A stretch of DNA of 33,952 nucleotides. It comes from Thermodesulfovibrionia bacterium (GTDB taxonomy: Bacteria; Nitrospirota; Thermodesulfovibrionia; UBA6902; BMS3Bbin08). Under the pieces are notes generated by a model. The model ran no database searches and was not told the DNA's origin. It saw only the letters and a list, made by a program, of their open reading frames with translations. Positions 28,690 to 33,952 of the stretch are shown here, one piece after another (the first letter of the stretch is position 1; each line of letters starts with the position of its first letter). The translations under genes and the position numbers were made by a program. The DNA is taken from contig JAUXYI010000044.1 of assembly GCA_030694425.1 (NCBI GenBank), positions 1 to 33,952 of the forward strand. Direction: 5' to 3'.

Positions 28690-28769
28690 ATTAAAAATCA
28701 AAAATTAAAATGCAAAATGTATCCCGACTATTCGGGATGATTTTTGCTCTTTGATTTTTAAATTTTTAG
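28690..28769. repeat. Dispersed palindrome family B, copy 4
   Basis: Core ATCCCGACTATTCGGGAT at 28721-28738 with TTAAAATGCAAAATG / TTTTTGCTCTTTGATTTT arms. It fills most of the gap between oppF and pdxJ. Confidence 0.85.
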
Positions 28770-28781
28770 GAGGAGGTTTAT

Positions 28782-29489
28782 ATGCTTCTTGGTGTTAATG
28801 TTGACCATGTAGCGACTGTAAGACAGGCAAGGGGAGGGATTGAGCCTGACCCGGTTGCAGCAGCAGCTCTGGCAATTAAAGGCGGCGCTGATGGGATTAC
28901 TGTGCACCTGAGAGAAGACAGAAGACACATACAGGATAAGGATTTAAAATTATTAAGACGTAGCGTATCAGTAGAGCTTAACCTTGAAATGGCTGCAGTT
29001 AAAGAGATGATAGGCATAGCTTTAAAGGTCAGGCCTGATATGGTTACGCTTGTGCCCGAAAAAAGGGCAGAGCTCACAACAGAAGGCGGAATTAATCTGC
29101 AAAAGAATAAAAATCAGATAGAGAAGGCAGTGAAAATAATTCAGAGTAAAGGCATACCCGTAAGCCTCTTTATAAACCCTTCAATTAAAGATATTGAAAT
29201 CTCAAAAGAGATAGGCGCCATGATGGTTGAGATACACACAGGATTTTATGCAGATTCTAAAGGGAAAAAACAAACAGCAGAATTTAAAAAGGTTGAAAAA
29301 GCGGTAAAAATAGCACTTAATCTTGGCCTTTTTGTTAATGCAGGACATGGGCTGAATTATTCAAATATAAAAAAGATTGTTTCTATTAATGGATTAAGAG
29401 GGTTTTATATTGGTCACAGTATTATCTCAAGGGCTATTTTTGCAGGGATAGAGAATGCTGTGAGGGAGATGAAGAAGTTGGTGGGATGA
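28782..29489 (+). CDS. pdxJ: Pyridoxine 5'-phosphate synthase
   Basis: 235 residues. LGVNVDHVATVRQARGG at 3-19 and ITVHLREDRRHIQDKD with the catalytic and phosphate-binding residues identify PdxJ; VTLVPEKRAELTTEGG and VNAGHGLNYSN follow. It condenses 1-deoxyxylulose-5-phosphate with 3-amino-2-oxopropyl phosphate in the DXP-dependent vitamin B6 route, which implies PdxA elsewhere. GGAGGAGG before the ATG. Overlaps acpS by four bases, the usual pdxJ-acpS pair. Confidence 0.97.
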   Translation: MLLGVNVDHVATVRQARGGIEPDPVAAAALAIKGGADGITVHLREDRRHIQDKDLKLLRRSVSVELNLEMAAVKEMIGIALKVRPDMVTLVPEKRAELTTEGGINLQKNKNQIEKAVKIIQSKGIPVSLFINPSIKDIEISKEIGAMMVEIHTGFYADSKGKKQTAEFKKVEKAVKIALNLGLFVNAGHGLNYSNIKKIVSINGLRGFYIGHSIISRAIFAGIENAVREMKKLVG

Positions 29490-29857
29490 TATACGGCATT
29501 GGCATAGACCTTATAAAAATTGAACGCATGAAAGAAGCTGCGGATAAATGGGGAAGGAAATTTCTTGAGAGGATATTTACAGAGAGCGAGATTAAATATT
29601 GCTATGAACGAAAAGAGCCTTATCTTTCCCTTGCTGTGAGGTTTGCTGCAAAAGAGGCTTTGATAAAGGCAATAGGTTCAGAAGCATTTGTTCCTTTAAC
29701 AGACATTGAAATTATGAATTTTGAAAACGGGAAACCATTGATTAAAGCCAAAGGCAAGCTTGAAGAATTTTTTAGAGAAAAATCAATAAAACACTGTCAT
29801 CTGTCACTCAGTCATGAGAAAGAATTCGGCATAGCGTGTGTGGTGCTGGAGAGGTGA
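29486..29857 (+). CDS. acpS: Holo-[acyl-carrier-protein] synthase
   Basis: 123 residues. The Mg-binding D8 in GIGIDLIKIERM and E57 in RFAAKEALIKA are the 4'-phosphopantetheinyl-transferase signature. It transfers phosphopantetheine from CoA to acyl carrier protein. ATGA overlap with pdxJ. In many genomes nnr comes next; here only its first ~25 codons survive. Confidence 0.97.
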   Translation: MIYGIGIDLIKIERMKEAADKWGRKFLERIFTESEIKYCYERKEPYLSLAVRFAAKEALIKAIGSEAFVPLTDIEIMNFENGKPLIKAKGKLEEFFREKSIKHCHLSLSHEKEFGIACVVLER

Positions 29858-29968
29858 TTAAAAGTCGCGAGGTAATCCATTTCTTCGGGGTTGAGCCCTA
29901 TTAATTCTTCACATTCTGGTAAATCATTTAGGTTTTTTGTAATGTATAACTTTTTTATGATTTAAATC

Positions 29969-30115
29969 ATGAGGTCGTCCCTTGAAAAATATGGTATTGC
30001 CGGGACTATTCTTATGGAGAGGGCAGGGCTTGCAAAGGTATTAAAGCATAAGCTCACTGACGAGTGCCTGTCAATGACTCGTTCAAGTCCGCATTTTGTT
30101 AGCCCTTTTCTATAA
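29969..30115 (+). pseudogene. Truncated nnr (NAD(P)H-hydrate epimerase/dehydratase) at cassette-array edge
   Basis: The frame from ATG 29969 reads LEKYGIAGTILMERAGLAKV, the conserved N-terminal helix of Nnr/YjeF (usually ...YGIPGxxLMExAGxA), then enters the first attC-like site at 30046 and runs through it to a TAA at 30113. About 25 genuine codons remain of roughly 500. The place, directly after acpS, is where nnr normally stands. The 111-base gap before it (29858-29968) includes an antisense open frame (see findings) and a TGAT-N4-ATCA palindrome at 29957. Confidence 0.7.
30046..30105 (-). other. attC-like site 1 (end of cassette A)
   Basis: On the minus strand it begins GGGCTAACAAAATGCGGAC, with arms TGAACGAGT / ACTCGTCA, the left arm carrying one extra A, and ends GAGCTTATGC. 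The outer box is CTTATGC where GTTRRRY is the rule. 60 bases. Confidence 0.75.
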
Positions 30116-30150
30116 TTTTCTTAAGACACGAATATCAAATATAATTCATA

Positions 30151-30897
30151 CTATTTGTCAGGCAATGTCTGGCAGAAAGAGAGAACATCAAGCTGGTCTT
30201 TTAGAGTGAGAAAAAACAGAGAAATCATTTGAGCCCCGGGATGCCCCCAGCGGATTTTGTGTAAAGACTCCCATGGGTTTTTATTAGCTACTGTTCCGAT
30301 ATATTCTGGGTTTTTCTCGTCTTTGAAATTTATCTCCTTCCCGTCTTCACCATGGCATTTTATACATGTGCTCAAGTATATTCTGCCACCGCTTGCTGGA
30401 TCACCTATGCCCTTTCTAGTATCGCGATTAATATACAAGTCTACATCTACCTGCCCGTAAGCCACAAAAATTGCCAGTGCTTCTAATTCTTTGTCAAGTA
30501 TCATGCTGCCAAAAGCATGCGTATTATCTTTGAGTACCTTTATAATCTGCTCTGGCTTTTGGTTAGCATAAGACCTGATGCCAGTTATCCCTGTATAATG
30601 ACTGCCTGTTGAGTAAGCACCTGCCTTACCCTTATAATCCCATCCATGGCACTCCTTGCAACGCCATGTAGCCGCACCCTTCTTTTGACCAACTGCAGGA
30701 TAAGAGGGATGGGTTTTATCTATTTTTACCCCGAGCTCCTCAAACCAATTGTCATACAAAACTCCACCACGGACAAGTTGGGCAAATTCTCTACCTGTAA
30801 GTTTTCCAATTTCTTCAGCAGTAGATGATGAAACTGTAACTAACAACGCAAATACTGCCAGAATAAACAAGCAACATGCTATCTTTGTTTTTTTCAT
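30151..30897 (-). CDS. Periplasmic di-haem c-type cytochrome (cassette A)
   Basis: 248 residues. Signal peptide about 1-27 (CCLFILAVFALLVTVSSSTA). Two haem c sites: CKECH 80-84 and CIKCH 178-182, each at the head of a cytochrome c-like domain; possible distal Met at 132 (FGSMILDKE) and in GAQMISLFF near the end. The N-terminal domain (EFAQLVRGGVLYDNWFEELG and later WRCKECHGWDYKG) is like cytochromes found beside periplasmic oxidoreductases. It would carry electrons outside the membrane. AAGGAGG precedes the ATG. It fills one integron-type cassette, ending 46 bases before attC-like site 1. Confidence 0.93.
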   Translation of the reverse strand: MKKTKIACCLFILAVFALLVTVSSSTAEEIGKLTGREFAQLVRGGVLYDNWFEELGVKIDKTHPSYPAVGQKKGAATWRCKECHGWDYKGKAGAYSTGSHYTGITGIRSYANQKPEQIIKVLKDNTHAFGSMILDKELEALAIFVAYGQVDVDLYINRDTRKGIGDPASGGRIYLSTCIKCHGEDGKEINFKDEKNPEYIGTVANKNPWESLHKIRWGHPGAQMISLFFLTLKDQLDVLSFCQTLPDK

Positions 30898-30968
30898 TTA
30901 CATCCTCCTTTATTGAAATTTGAAACATAGTTTAGCACATCACACAGAGGTATGATAGTAATTATATT

Positions 30969-31096
30969 GGGCTAAGCTGACTGACGAGTGCCACTGAATA
31001 ATCTCAACATGCCTTAAACCGATTTGCATACCTAATAACAATGCTACCTAAAAAAAGCGTCCTGTGGCACTCGTTCATGTGCACGCAATGTTATGC
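30969..31096 (-). other. attC-like site 2 (end of cassette B)
   Basis: On the minus strand it begins GCATAACATTGCGTGCACA, long arms TGAACGAGTGCCAC / GTGGCACTCGTCA (extra A in the left arm) around a loop of about 70 bases, and ends CAGCTTAGCCC. As in site 1 the last box is CTT instead of GTT. 128 bases. Its first box contains the stop codon of the gene upstream. Confidence 0.8.
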
Positions 31097-31315
31097 AATT
31101 TTTTTCTGTTTTTTAATAATCTCAGTTAATGATCTTAATGCTTGATTTACAGAGTCATGATCAGGGAAAAATTTGGTAACATCAGGCTCAATAACTACAA
31201 CATTTGTTCCTTGTGCGTACCTCTTTGCATATTTTCCTTGAATGCCTTTGCTGAAATCATATTCTTCAAGCATGTCTCTATCTTTTAGCATTCTTTTCAT
31301 ATTGTTTCCTTTCAT
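31091..31315 (-). CDS. Small antitoxin-like protein (cassette B)
   Basis: 74 residues. RDMLEEYDFSKGIQGKYAKR and TNVVVIEPDVTKFFPDHDSV, then NQALRSL, are typical of a widespread family of small proteins found as antitoxin partners (YDFSKG..GKY...VVV.DPDV..FPD..SVN.ALR). No toxin gene is intact next to it. The TAA stop lies inside the first box of attC-like site 2 (GCATAAC), as in many cassettes. Possible starts at 31315 or five codons later. A transposase gene has been inserted upstream in the same cassette. Confidence 0.75.
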   Translation of the reverse strand: MKGNNMKRMLKDRDMLEEYDFSKGIQGKYAKRYAQGTNVVVIEPDVTKFFPDHDSVNQALRSLTEIIKKQKKIA

Positions 31316-31372
31316 TTTTTGTTGCTTTTCTTGTTCTCTAGTAGTAGAAATAGTAGAAATAGCATAGAAATA

Positions 31373-32403
31373 GGGTCGGGTCTACACATTACACAGCATT
31401 AACCTGCTGCAAATATATTTCATCTTTCTTCTCAGCTTTTTATCTTTATCCAATACTATATTAAACCGGCGACTTGTCTGTGATACAGATGATTCACCTA
31501 TATTAAAATGGTCTCCAATTTCCTTTAGAGTCCTCCCGCTATATTTATGGCATAAATAAATAGAAGCTTTCTTCGATAACGCCTCATCCCCTTTAAATAT
31601 TCCTTCCACTTCTCCTATGATTTCCTTTATTGATGCCTTCGTTAGTTCCGTTAAAGCAGGTAAATTACGGTCAGTCTCCTTTCCGCTTAGATATTTGTCT
31701 TTTATCTCATTAATAAAATCAATCCCTCCCAAAATAGTTGAAGCTACTGTATCTTTTAGTGGACTGTCATATTCTTTATCTACTAAGGCATTTACAAACT
31801 CGCTGTATCTTTTCTGTGCTATGGTTGTTTTACCTCCAAAATAATTAAGAATAAAGTCCGCTATAAGCCACTTAGGTATTTTCTTGCCGACATAGTATTG
31901 ATAACTTGACCAAAGATATTGCTCAGGCTTGCTCACAATACCAGCTCTGACAGGATTTAGATGGATATATCGGGAAAGCTCCCCTGCATATTCATCAGCA
32001 TCAACAAGTATTGCCTTATATCTTCCTTGAAAAAGATGTCCTGCCCTTTGCCTCCTGGTATTAAAGTAGGTTGTATATGCACCATTTATATGCCTCATGA
32101 TCTGAGAGAGGTTTCCCATAGGTGTCTCTAATAAAAGGTGATAATGATTGCTCATAAGGCAATAAACATGTATTACTGCTCCATATCGTTGGGTTGCTGT
32201 CTCCAGATATGTAAGAAATTTCTTAAAATCCTGTTCGCTTTTGAATATATCTTTTCGTTCATTACCCCGTGATGTAATATGATAAAACGCACCAGCGTAT
32301 TCTATCCTTAATTGTCGCGCCATGGTCAGGTCTTAAGTATAAAATCGGTGTTTCTATTTTTACATTAATTTACATTGTTTGTCAAGAGTGTAGACCTGAC
32401 CCC
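31373..32403 (-). mobile_element. REP-associated tyrosine transposase element inside cassette B
   Basis: The ends are 15-base inverted repeats: GTGTAGACCTGACCC at 32388-32402 and, complementary, GTGTAGACCCGACCC at 31387-31373 (one mismatch). About 1.03 kb with one gene. No target duplication is obvious. Without it cassette B would be about 480 bases, an ordinary size. Confidence 0.8.
31382..32323 (-). CDS. REP-associated tyrosine transposase (Y1_Tnp, RAYT type)
   Basis: 313 residues. The N-terminal Y1/IS200-like domain starts RQLRIEYAGAFYHITSRGNE; the metal-binding HUH pair is H60 and H62 in CLMSNHYHLLLE; the segment DEYAGELSRYIHLNPVRAGI (about 110-129) holds the candidate nucleophile tyrosines Y112 and Y119. 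The C-terminal part (YLCHKYSGRTLKEIGDHFN, then IGESSVSQT) is a DnaA/Trp-repressor-like helix-turn-helix. Such enzymes process hairpin DNA of REP type. The stop codon lies inside the element's left inverted repeat. Looks intact. Confidence 0.93.
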   Translation of the reverse strand: MARQLRIEYAGAFYHITSRGNERKDIFKSEQDFKKFLTYLETATQRYGAVIHVYCLMSNHYHLLLETPMGNLSQIMRHINGAYTTYFNTRRQRAGHLFQGRYKAILVDADEYAGELSRYIHLNPVRAGIVSKPEQYLWSSYQYYVGKKIPKWLIADFILNYFGGKTTIAQKRYSEFVNALVDKEYDSPLKDTVASTILGGIDFINEIKDKYLSGKETDRNLPALTELTKASIKEIIGEVEGIFKGDEALSKKASIYLCHKYSGRTLKEIGDHFNIGESSVSQTSRRFNIVLDKDKKLRRKMKYICSRLMLCNV

Positions 32404-32475
32404 TTTGACCCTCTCAAATATCAGGGTGGGTATATATTTTATCGTGGATTGTATTATGGTTTCTGTAATTTGCAT
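32404..32475 (-). pseudogene. 5' stub of the original cassette B gene
   Basis: ATG at 32475, eleven bases after the cassette start, opens MQITETIIQSTIKYIPTLIF and is cut by the transposase element after 24 codons. The short distance from cassette boundary to ATG is typical of cassette genes. Product not recognised. Confidence 0.4.
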
Positions 32476-32480
32476 TTTGT

Positions 32481-32610
32481 GCATAACGTCATGATGAGGG
32501 ATGCGGAATGAAAAGCATAAAAGTTATTAAATCAGAAAAAATATATGCTACCCAAATAACCTTAAAAAGGTCACAGCTATTCCGCATTCCTCTCGATCAA
32601 ATGGTTATAT
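32481..32610 (-). other. attC-like site 3 (end of cassette C)
   Basis: On the minus strand: ATATAAC box, arms GAGGAATGCGGAAT / ATTCCGCATCCCTC (one G-T type mismatch), a loop of about 70 bases, and the canonical end GACGTTATGC (GTTRRRY-like). 130 bases. Starts two bases after the stop codon of the HEPN-like gene. Confidence 0.85.
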
Positions 32611-32612
32611 TC

Positions 32613-33164
32613 TCAATAAACATTTTCTTTAATGTCTTTGGTTGAATTATAAGCAGTCTCTGAAAATCTAATGGCCTGTTCTAAGTGTCGATCATAATAA
32701 TCCTTTAAATTATCGGGGTACTGAGTATTACCTAACCCTCTGAGTTTTTTAATTAAATATTCATAGTAATAATAAGATGCTTCAATTCCCTTATCGAAAT
32801 CTGGATGGTGTGTTACACTTGGGTCCTTTTGATGATGTGAAATGAGGTTATTCCTATACGTTATCATATACTCCCAATAATCTTTCCAATCAGTTTCGTT
32901 TGATTTGACGCGTGCCAGCAGTTTAGCTCGAAAAGAAACATGATCATCGACAAGATTCTTCCAATGTGTCGGCTCGCTGTCAGTACCAAATATTTTGCAC
33001 CACTCTAGAATTACAAAGTCGAAGAAATTGTTTTGAATCATAATCCAATAATTTTGTGTAAATGTCCCTTGATATTTAGAAAGGGATTCATAATTTGCGG
33101 CATTGCGAATAACATAAACAAGTCTAAATATATGTTCTTTTAATTGTTGCTCTGTAATTGCCAT
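32613..33164 (-). CDS. HEPN-like protein (cassette C), function unknown
   Basis: 183 residues, all helical in pattern. WKDYWEYMITYRNNLISHHQ contains R-x5-H, the type of motif found in HEPN RNases and AbiU2-like abortive-infection proteins; upstream, NFFDFVILEWCKIFG is the usual preceding helix. If it is a HEPN nuclease, it could be a defence or toxin protein; this is an inference from one motif and the fold pattern. AAGGAGAGG precedes the ATG; the cassette boundary is only 19 bases upstream and the attC begins right after the stop, an ideal cassette. Confidence 0.8.
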   Translation of the reverse strand: MAITEQQLKEHIFRLVYVIRNAANYESLSKYQGTFTQNYWIMIQNNFFDFVILEWCKIFGTDSEPTHWKNLVDDHVSFRAKLLARVKSNETDWKDYWEYMITYRNNLISHHQKDPSVTHHPDFDKGIEASYYYYEYLIKKLRGLGNTQYPDNLKDYYDRHLEQAIRFSETAYNSTKDIKENVY

Positions 33165-33177
33165 GTCCTCTCCTTAA

Positions 33178-33232
33178 ATATAACGCAAAATTGAGGGGTG
33201 CGATTAGCATCCCCTCCAATGACTTGTTAGTC
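33178..33232 (-). other. attC-like site 4 (end of cassette D)
   Basis: On the minus strand: GACTAACAAGTCATT, arms GAGGGGATGC / GCACCCCTC with an extra A in the left arm, loop TAATC, then AATTTTGCGTTATAT. A compact 55-base site with both boxes canonical in the central AAC/GTT. Best-formed site of the array. Confidence 0.85.
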
Positions 33233-33243
33233 AAATTATAAAT

Positions 33244-33483
33244 ATGTTTTTAATTAATTGGATAGTTAAACGCTTCCCATATATTTTTGTCAGCGATGAG
33301 TCCATTGAATTTCTTGCGGCTATTTCGGTTATTGATAATGCAGCACCTCCCCAAATAATGGAGGAATTGTTATTTGATAAATTAACAGGTTTCCAACAGA
33401 AAGTTGTCATGAAATTTTATTTATCTAAGTATGAATTTATAGATAGCATCAAGCCAAGCAAGACCATAAAGATTGAAAAGTAA
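33244..33483 (+). CDS. Opposite-strand open frame in cassette D, doubtful
   Basis: 79 codons beginning MFLINWIVKRFPYIFVSDES and containing AAPPQIMEELLFDKL, which reads like protein rather than noise. No ribosome site; its 3' end overlaps the end of the minus-strand SAP-like gene. If real, the cassette would hold two convergent genes. It occupies the otherwise empty 33233-33420. Family not recognised. Confidence 0.3.
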   Translation: MFLINWIVKRFPYIFVSDESIEFLAAISVIDNAAPPQIMEELLFDKLTGFQQKVVMKFYLSKYEFIDSIKPSKTIKIEK

Positions 33484-33705
33484 TAGGAATATGAGTGAAA
33501 TAACTGCAACAATTAAAGCAATTTTGGGGTAATTAATATTTGATGATTCTCTATTTAAAACATGGTAATTCTTTATCCGTGATAAGAGTATATTTTTATC
33601 TTCATAGCCTGAAGATGTGCCTATGCCAGTTATATCAATATTTCGTGAGATACAATACTCTTTCAACTCTGAAATGGACATTTTATTAAAGTCAGGTTTT
33701 CTCAT
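33421..33705 (-). CDS. SAP-like domain small membrane protein (cassette D)
   Basis: 94 residues from ATG 33705, two bases after the cassette boundary TTAGTC; the frame is open further upstream (to 33786) but that part would lie in the preceding attC. MSISELKEYCISRNIDITGI with KNILLSRI (about 8-40) resembles a SAP-type helix-extended loop-helix DNA-binding motif, followed by a membrane helix (about 58-80: YPKIALIVAVISLIFLLLFN). A membrane-anchored SAP-like protein would be unusual. No other similarity seen. Confidence 0.6.
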   Translation of the reverse strand: MRKPDFNKMSISELKEYCISRNIDITGIGTSSGYEDKNILLSRIKNYHVLNRESSNINYPKIALIVAVISLIFLLLFNLYGLAWLDAIYKFILR

Positions 33706-33707
33706 AT

Positions 33708-33774
33708 GACTAACAATTAATCTACCAAGCACCCCTTTCCGAGAATGCTTGAATAAAACTATAGCACGTTGCAA
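33708..33774 (-). other. Possible attC-like site 5 (start of cassette D)
   Basis: Its end GTTAGTC (33714-33708) is the boundary of cassette D and matches that cassette's own attC. Arms CAAGCA / TGCTTG and a possible first box TTGCAAC at 33774. The pairing is weaker than in sites 1-4 and the left limit is uncertain. Confidence 0.45.
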
Positions 33775-33798
33775 AACATCTATCAATAGAGGTAAGTA

Positions 33799-33952
33799 GG
33801 GTCAAGTCTTTACTTTTACTATGCGGTAGTTCCTGCAAGAAACAAGACCTGAACTTCCCATTTTGTTTTTTCAGTTTAACCTGAATCTTGCGTGAAACAA
33901 CATAATTTTACCTTTCTGGATTCCCGCTTACTGACTGCGGGAATGACGACCA
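33799..33952. repeat. Repeat-rich right edge: RAYT-end-like words and palindrome family A half copy
   Basis: GGGTCAAGTCTTTAC at 33799-33813 resembles the ends of the transposase element (GGGTCGGGTCTACAC), with ACAAGACCTGAAC about 30 bases later as a partial inverse. 33915-33952 is the right half of family A (CTGGATTCCCGCTTA...GCGGGAATGACG). No gene seen. Confidence 0.6.

What the first reader, a model, noticed from the sequence alone, without database searches (positions are those of the whole stretch)
29969..30105. nnr gene truncated exactly at the array edge
After acpS the first ~25 codons of an Nnr/YjeF homologue are intact, then the sequence becomes attC-like site 1 and the frame ends inside it. 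This shows the array (or a deletion bringing it here) destroyed the usual pdxJ-acpS-nnr order. If no second nnr exists the cell lacks NAD(P)HX repair.
Basis: partly seen in the sequence, partly recalled or inferred. Interest (0 to 1): 0.5.

Follow-up and report, generated by a model that had tools for sequence, protein, structure and literature searches.

The report
Leftover scrap of a relocated gene
A 49-base scrap of a metabolite-repair gene sits between a core gene and an integron cassette array; the gene itself was not lost but sits, whole, elsewhere in the same genome, so this is an ordinary rearrangement scar.

Summary
The Nnr-like scrap is real, but smaller than described, and it does not mean that the cell lost the gene. 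Only 49 bases (29984-30032) are nnr. They match codons 19-34, not the first ~25, and are 48 of 49 identical to an intact 576-codon nnr on another contig of the same genome (G000:C30:26555-28282, both domains above curated cut-offs). NAD(P)HX repair is predicted present. The scrap ends a shrunken, collinear remnant of an older acpS-rseC(reverse)-nnr junction: acpS, an rseC C-terminal piece, an FNR/CRP-like palindrome, nnr codons 19-34, then attC site 1. In relatives, nnr follows acpS in 27 of 48 genomes with both genes, 5 with rseC between. Here nnr and six downstream neighbours lie as an inverted block between an MqnD-like gene and ppx, which are neighbours in 5 of 11 relatives. Best reading: the block was copied or moved there, and the old copy was eaten away by deletions. 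The attC array is real but reads on the minus strand; its distal end faces the scrap, and the junction shows no integrase signature. The far side of the array is unread because the contig ends in a dispersed repeat.

The parts
29486..29857 (+). acpS, intact
   Evidence: TIGR00516 95.5 bits over cut-off 59.8, PF01648 67 bits over 25; 89% identical to G001
29858..29952 (-). remnant of the C terminus of rseC (RseC/MucC), read on the minus strand
   Evidence: tblastn 53-62% over 32 residues to three relatives at the same place and orientation (E 1.4e-9, 6e-9, 5e-7); an intact homologue, L048:7370-7870, hits PF04246
29957..29970 (.). 14-bp palindrome ATGATTTAAATCAT, FNR/CRP-like (label recalled)
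   Evidence: same TATGA-N6-TCATG form upstream of nnr in all 4 tested relatives with the rseC-nnr order (-123, -124, -125, -324), one of them with one mismatch to the scanned half-sites
29984..30032 (+). nnr scrap, codons 19-34 of the intact gene
   Evidence: 48 of 49 bases identical to C30 nnr; best of 14 relatives 43 of 49
   Evidence: no Pfam match
30046..30104 (-). attC site 1, terminal (distal) site of the array
   Evidence: boxes GCATAAG/GTTAGCC; shares TAAGCTnACTGACGAGTGCC with site 2; 6-bp stem
30151..30897 (-). cassette gene: c-type cytochrome with two matched stretches
   Evidence: PF13442 37.8 bits and PF00034 34.7 bits, both over cut-off
30970..31096 (-). attC site 2
   Evidence: 11-bp stem; GGCTAAG pairs with GTTAGCC of site 1 and GTTATGC with GCATAAC of site 3
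31091..31315 (-). small cassette ORF, 74 aa, no family above cut-off; its stop overlaps the site 2 box
31382..32323 (-). REP-associated Y1 transposase between 15-nt inverted repeats 31373-31387 and 32388-32402
   Evidence: NF047646 87.9 bits over cut-off 80; inverted repeat
32481..32610 (-). attC site 3
   Evidence: 14-bp stem, boxes GCATAAC/GTTATAT
32613..33164 (-). cassette gene: HEPN/AbiU2-like
   Evidence: PF18734 30.2 bits over 26.8
33178..33232 (-). attC site 4
   Evidence: 9-bp stem, boxes ATATAAC/GTTAGTC
33421..33705 (-). cassette gene: SAP-domain protein; its ATG is 2 bases from box GACTAAC (33708-33714)
   Evidence: PF02037 24.7 bits over 23.9 for the longer frame 33424-33786
33873..33952 (+). 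dispersed repeat in which the contig ends
   Evidence: 42 matches in the genome, 11 of them 53 bases or longer, this one included; copies lie upstream of C30 nnr and C99 mutS

Best explanation
The scrap is a neutral leftover of the original nnr at its ancestral place after acpS. In an ancestor the order was acpS - rseC(reverse) - nnr - pgeF - CBS - tsaE - nadK - udg - HIT. The nnr-to-HIT block came to lie, inverted, between an MqnD-like gene and ppx (now contig C30), where it still encodes a full Nnr. The old junction then shrank by several deletions to a 175-base remnant, and the last deletion (or the same event) joined nnr codon 34 to a point 13 bases before the distal attC site of a cassette array. 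SHOWN: the identity, the collinear remnant order, the intact second locus, the block context, the array anatomy. INFERRED: that duplication came first and deletion after, and that the deletions were random and not made by the integron integrase or the transposase. Nothing suggests that the scrap has a function.
For: 48 of 49 bases to the own C30 nnr against at most 43 of 49 in 14 relatives; C30 nnr has 576 codons, no stop, PF03853 163.8 and PF01256 190 bits, TIGR00197 157.1 over 88.6 and TIGR00196 226.1 over 129.85. rseC C-terminal piece and palindrome in the ancestral order between acpS and the scrap. acpS-nnr linked in 27 of 48 relatives, rseC between in 5; 29 of 42 named loci examined. C30 order nnr-pgeF-CBS-tsaE-nadK matches G001, G003 and G030, continuing to udg in G003 and G030 and to HIT in G003. 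MqnD-like gene directly upstream of ppx in 5 of 11 relatives but split from it by the block here. C14 and C30 are alike in tetranucleotides (r 0.990; to G001 0.897 and 0.907) and G+C (37.8 and 38.3%).
Against: The duplication itself is inferred: a plain cut-and-paste move would leave no second copy of codons 19-34, and no other piece of the block was found in the array region. Both edges of the 49 bases are sharp, which would also fit a short templated patch. No genome of the same genus was among those searched, so the steps cannot be ordered. The genome is a 101-contig draft and no reads were available to check the joins. The rseC-nnr order is absent in the two same-family genomes with both acpS and nnr (G001, G003).
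Confidence: 0.8

Rival explanations
1. The cassette array was inserted into nnr by the integron integrase (attC x genomic site) and so truncated it; the remaining 3' part lies on the far side.
For: The array does abut the scrap; four attC sites with matching boxes.
Against: 13 non-nnr bases lie between scrap and site; the terminal box on the minus strand reads CTTATGC, without the G of the usual G|TT (rule recalled); the only other nnr in the genome is whole, not a 3' part; rseC and the nnr 5' end are also deleted, which an insertion does not explain.
Confidence: 0.06
2. The 49 bases are a templated patch (filler DNA) copied from the C30 nnr during break repair, not a remnant of the old gene.
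For: Sharp edges on both sides and 48 of 49 identity.
Against: It sits exactly where relatives have nnr, in the right orientation, after an rseC piece and the promoter-like palindrome in the ancestral order.
Confidence: 0.08
3. Assembly or binning artefact: C14 or C30 is chimaeric or from another organism.
For: Draft of 101 contigs, contamination estimate 3.35%; contig C14 ends in a repeat.
Against: Composition of C14 and C30 agrees, they share dispersed repeats at 94-97%, and scrap and gene agree at 98%. The one base difference and the ordered remnant are not what a k-mer misjoin makes (inference).
Confidence: 0.06

Closest known systems
Nnr, bifunctional NAD(P)H-hydrate epimerase/dehydratase (YjeF_N + Carb_kinase)
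   Same: The 16 codons are identical in protein sequence to residues 19-34 of the genome's own Nnr
   Different: The scrap lacks everything else: no domain, no start, no catalytic part
[quoted passage not shown] IntegronFinder 2.0, PMC9024848, passages read)
   Same: At least four attC sites with matching boxes and no integron integrase over cut-off in the genome
   Different: The contig ends just after the array, so an integrase may simply be unassembled; a covariance-model attC search was not run
Pseudogene remnant left at the old site after gene relocation (general phenomenon, recalled)
   Same: Collinear shrunken remnant at the ancestral place, whole copy elsewhere
   Different: Very small (49 bases) and next to a cassette array

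Membership tests
nnr pseudogene remnant | DNA-level identity to a whole copy in the same genome | tested here: met
   48 of 49 bases to C30
nnr pseudogene remnant | Lies at the ancestral position (after acpS, same strand) | tested here: met
   27 of 48 relatives have nnr there; rseC remnant and palindrome in order
nnr pseudogene remnant | No longer encodes the enzyme | tested here: met
   48 codons, no Pfam match at E up to 1
functional nnr (C30 copy) | Both domains over curated cut-offs in one open frame | tested here: met
functional nnr (C30 copy) | Enzyme activity | not testable with these tools
   Needs an assay; motifs GTGDVLTG, NGGDGL and DIPSG are present by string search (that they matter is recalled)
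CALIN / integron cassette array | Two or more attC sites with stem and GTT-type boxes, boxes of neighbouring sites complementary | tested here: met
   Four sites; box pairs 6/7, 7/7, 7/7, 7/7; stems of 6 to 14 bp
CALIN / integron cassette array | No integron integrase nearby | tested here: inconclusive
   TIGR02249: 9 matches in the genome, none over cut-off 265 bits; the array runs to the contig end
cassette insertion into nnr by IntI | Junction at G|TT with nnr continuing on the other side | tested here: not met
   13 non-nnr bases, CTTATGC at the terminal box, no separate 3' part in the genome as assembled

The most novel reading that the evidence does not exclude
The integron took part in moving a core housekeeping block: recombination between the array's distal attC and a chromosomal site excised the nnr-HIT block, which re-entered between the MqnD-like gene and ppx, leaving the 49-base scar beside the terminal attC. 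This would make a cassette array a mover of native operons and not only of cassettes.
Probability: 0.04. Interest if true: 0.6.

Novelty: new member of a known kind. Interest (0 to 1): 0.22.

Why it matters
It corrects a tempting but wrong inference (loss of NAD(P)HX repair) and shows how a relocation can be read from a very small scar. It also bounds one array in time: its distal end sits on a remnant that is far closer to the own gene (48 of 49 bases) than to the nearest relative's (39 of 49). Otherwise it is ordinary genome rearrangement; acpS and nnr are not linked in 21 of 48 relatives (cases at draft contig ends included).

Tried and rejected
Considered and dropped: (a) that nnr is missing: refuted. 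(b) That the piece is the intact N terminus: the match starts at codon 19. (c) That the 12 bases before the core (R-S-S-L) are nnr too: the best relative reaches 7 of 12, the own gene 4 of 12, taken as near chance for the best of 15. (d) Remains of pgeF, CBS, tsaE, nadK, udg or HIT in the array region: tblastn gave only two weak HIT matches (E 0.37 and 0.77), taken as chance. (e) A repeat shared by both edges of the C30 block: best 17 bases, E 0.085. (f) The far side of the array: C99, which carries mutS (the second gene after HIT in G003), has the repeat copy most like the contig end (99%), but its left flank differs and the repeat has 42 matches, so no join is claimed. (g) Integron integrase: the C32, C9 and C61 matches are Xer-like or partial; the C32 protein scores 204 bits on XerA-type NF040815 (cut-off 220) and 184 on TIGR02249 (cut-off 265). 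(h) More arrays: two attC-arm patterns matched without mismatch only on C14; with mismatches they gave 3 and 4 other places, against 0 and 1 control matches. A looser pattern in the window was at chance (8 found, 7.4 expected), so the claim for attC rests on stems and paired boxes, not on that scan. One search counted the core one base out of register; one search replaces it. PADLOC gave nothing in four cassette proteins apart from one 13.9-bit match. The name MqnD is recalled; NCBIfam gave no match at 1e-10. Paper searches: integron and CALIN; NADHX; relocation remnants; Nitrospirota with integron and attC: 1 paper; only passages of PMC9024848 were read, the rest was seen as listings.

Full report
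WHAT IS THERE. The window is a whole contig (C14, 33,952 bases) of a 2.42-Mb draft genome in 101 contigs, 96.42% complete and 3.35% contaminated by the tool's figures. Its relatives are Nitrospirota: same-family G003 has the contig length and AcpS coordinates of Bacterium BMS3Bbin08 BDTR01000037.1, and the best named loci are mostly Nitrospirae/Thermodesulfovibrionales MAGs. pdxJ (28782-29489) and acpS (29486-29857) are intact. ORF 29969-30115 follows. Only 49 of its bases, 29984-30032, are nnr: 48 of 49 identical to codons 19-34 of the genome's own nnr, the one difference being synonymous (GAG/GAA). The flanks fall to 4 of 12 and 9 of 19. In 14 relatives the same 49 bases match at 32 to 43 (nearest relative by AcpS in the family, G001, 39).

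NNR IS NOT LOST. The genome has a complete nnr at C30:26555-28282 (minus): 576 codons, no stop, YjeF_N and Carb_kinase domains over cut-off, TIGR00196 and TIGR00197 over cut-off. It is followed by pgeF (Cu-oxidase_4), a CBS protein (name recalled), tsaE, nadK, family-4 uracil-DNA glycosylase and a HIT-type protein, the same run as in G003, where acpS stands before nnr; G030 agrees to udg and G001 to nadK. C14 and C30 match in composition (tetranucleotide r 0.990). Activity was not tested.

THE SCRAP IS PART OF A COLLINEAR REMNANT. Right after acpS, on the minus strand, a 32-residue stretch (29858-29952) matches the C terminus of a reverse gene that lies between acpS and nnr in three relatives (53-62%, E 1.4e-9 to 5e-7); that gene is RseC/MucC (PF04246). 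Five of the 27 linked relatives have rseC between acpS and nnr (G019, G024, G029, G030, G031). Next comes a palindrome, TATGATTTAAATCATG. The same TATGA-N6-TCATG form lies 123, 124, 125 and 324 bases before nnr in the four rseC-nnr relatives tested, and not in the nine other upstream regions tested, though four of these have other one-mismatch hits; the window has 5 exact and 22 exact or near matches in 33,952 bases, so the box counts only because of its place. Then come nnr codons 19-34, then 13 unrelated bases, then attC site 1. What is about 800-1000 bases in the rseC-bearing relatives is 175 here. Deletions in at least three places are the simplest reading.

WHERE THE GENE WENT. In 5 of 11 relatives the gene directly before ppx is a close relative (64-78%) of the MqnD-like gene of C30. 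In this genome the nnr-HIT block, inverted, an AbrB/PIN-like pair (names recalled) and a dispersed repeat lie between these two. So the block is what moved. A repeat of about 330 bases lies before nnr and is 80% identical to one before mutS on C99; an 83-base part of it is where contig C14 ends. Recombination between such repeats could have made the move; this is inference.

THE ARRAY. Four attC sites are supported by stems of 6, 11, 14 and 9 base pairs and by cassette boxes: each site's right box is the complement of the next site's left box at 6/7, 7/7, 7/7 and 7/7 (the last with a box at 33708-33714, the edge of a possible fifth site). All the cassette genes read on the minus strand. The cytochrome, HEPN and SAP genes stop 46, 2 and 188 bases before a site, and the 74-codon ORF stops within the box of site 2; the SAP gene starts 2 bases after a box. 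In three of four sites the odd base of the stem is on the + strand's right arm, which fits the minus reading (rule recalled). So the array most likely reads leftwards and site 1 is its distal end. An attI and integrase, if any, would lie beyond 33952. No integrase passed TIGR02249's cut-off in the genome. The insertion of a cassette should leave G|TT at the terminal box and nnr on both sides (rule recalled); the box reads CTTATGC and there is no separate 3' part. Hence a deletion up to the array is likelier than insertion into nnr.

HOW COMMON. Among 60 relatives searched, 48 gave both acpS and nnr; nnr is downstream on the same strand within 2.2 kb in 27 and not in 21, some of the 21 because a contig ends or because only a weaker AcpS-like protein was matched. 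Of the 80 named loci, 42 were examined and 29 of these show nnr downstream within the held flank. The linkage is thus old and often broken. The break here is one of several; only the scrap is special.

LIMITS. No reads, no same-genus genome, a draft assembly. The order duplication-then-deletion is inferred from the doubled 49 bases.

Noticed in passing
window 30046-33714: The cassette array most likely reads on the minus strand, with cassette genes for a c-type cytochrome, an AbiU2-like HEPN protein and a SAP-domain protein; site 1 is the distal end.
   Followed up: partly
window 31373-32402: A REP-associated Y1 transposase gene between 15-nt inverted repeats (GGGTCGGGTCTACAC / GTGTAGACCTGACCC) seems to have landed inside a cassette.
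   Followed up: no
window 33873-33952; C30 28553-28630; C99 6710-6789: A dispersed repeat, up to about 330 bases, lies directly upstream of nnr and mutS; it may carry a promoter or be a breakpoint hotspot.
   Followed up: partly
L041 6553-8283 (C30 nnr): The intact Nnr has in-frame low-complexity inserts (for example PPIPPLLKGGAGG and LTLPPRGGGQGWGG) that look like translated dispersed repeats; the stretch around residues 45-85 also hits other contigs of the genome.
   Followed up: no
L041 8730-9524 (C30 ppx): The ppx frame is 264 codons against open frames of about 310-360 in most relatives and looks cut at its 3' end.
   Followed up: no
window 28692-28765: An intergenic repeat of about 70 bases upstream of pdxJ recurs at 94% between CBS and pgeF and between HIT and udg on C30.
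   Followed up: no
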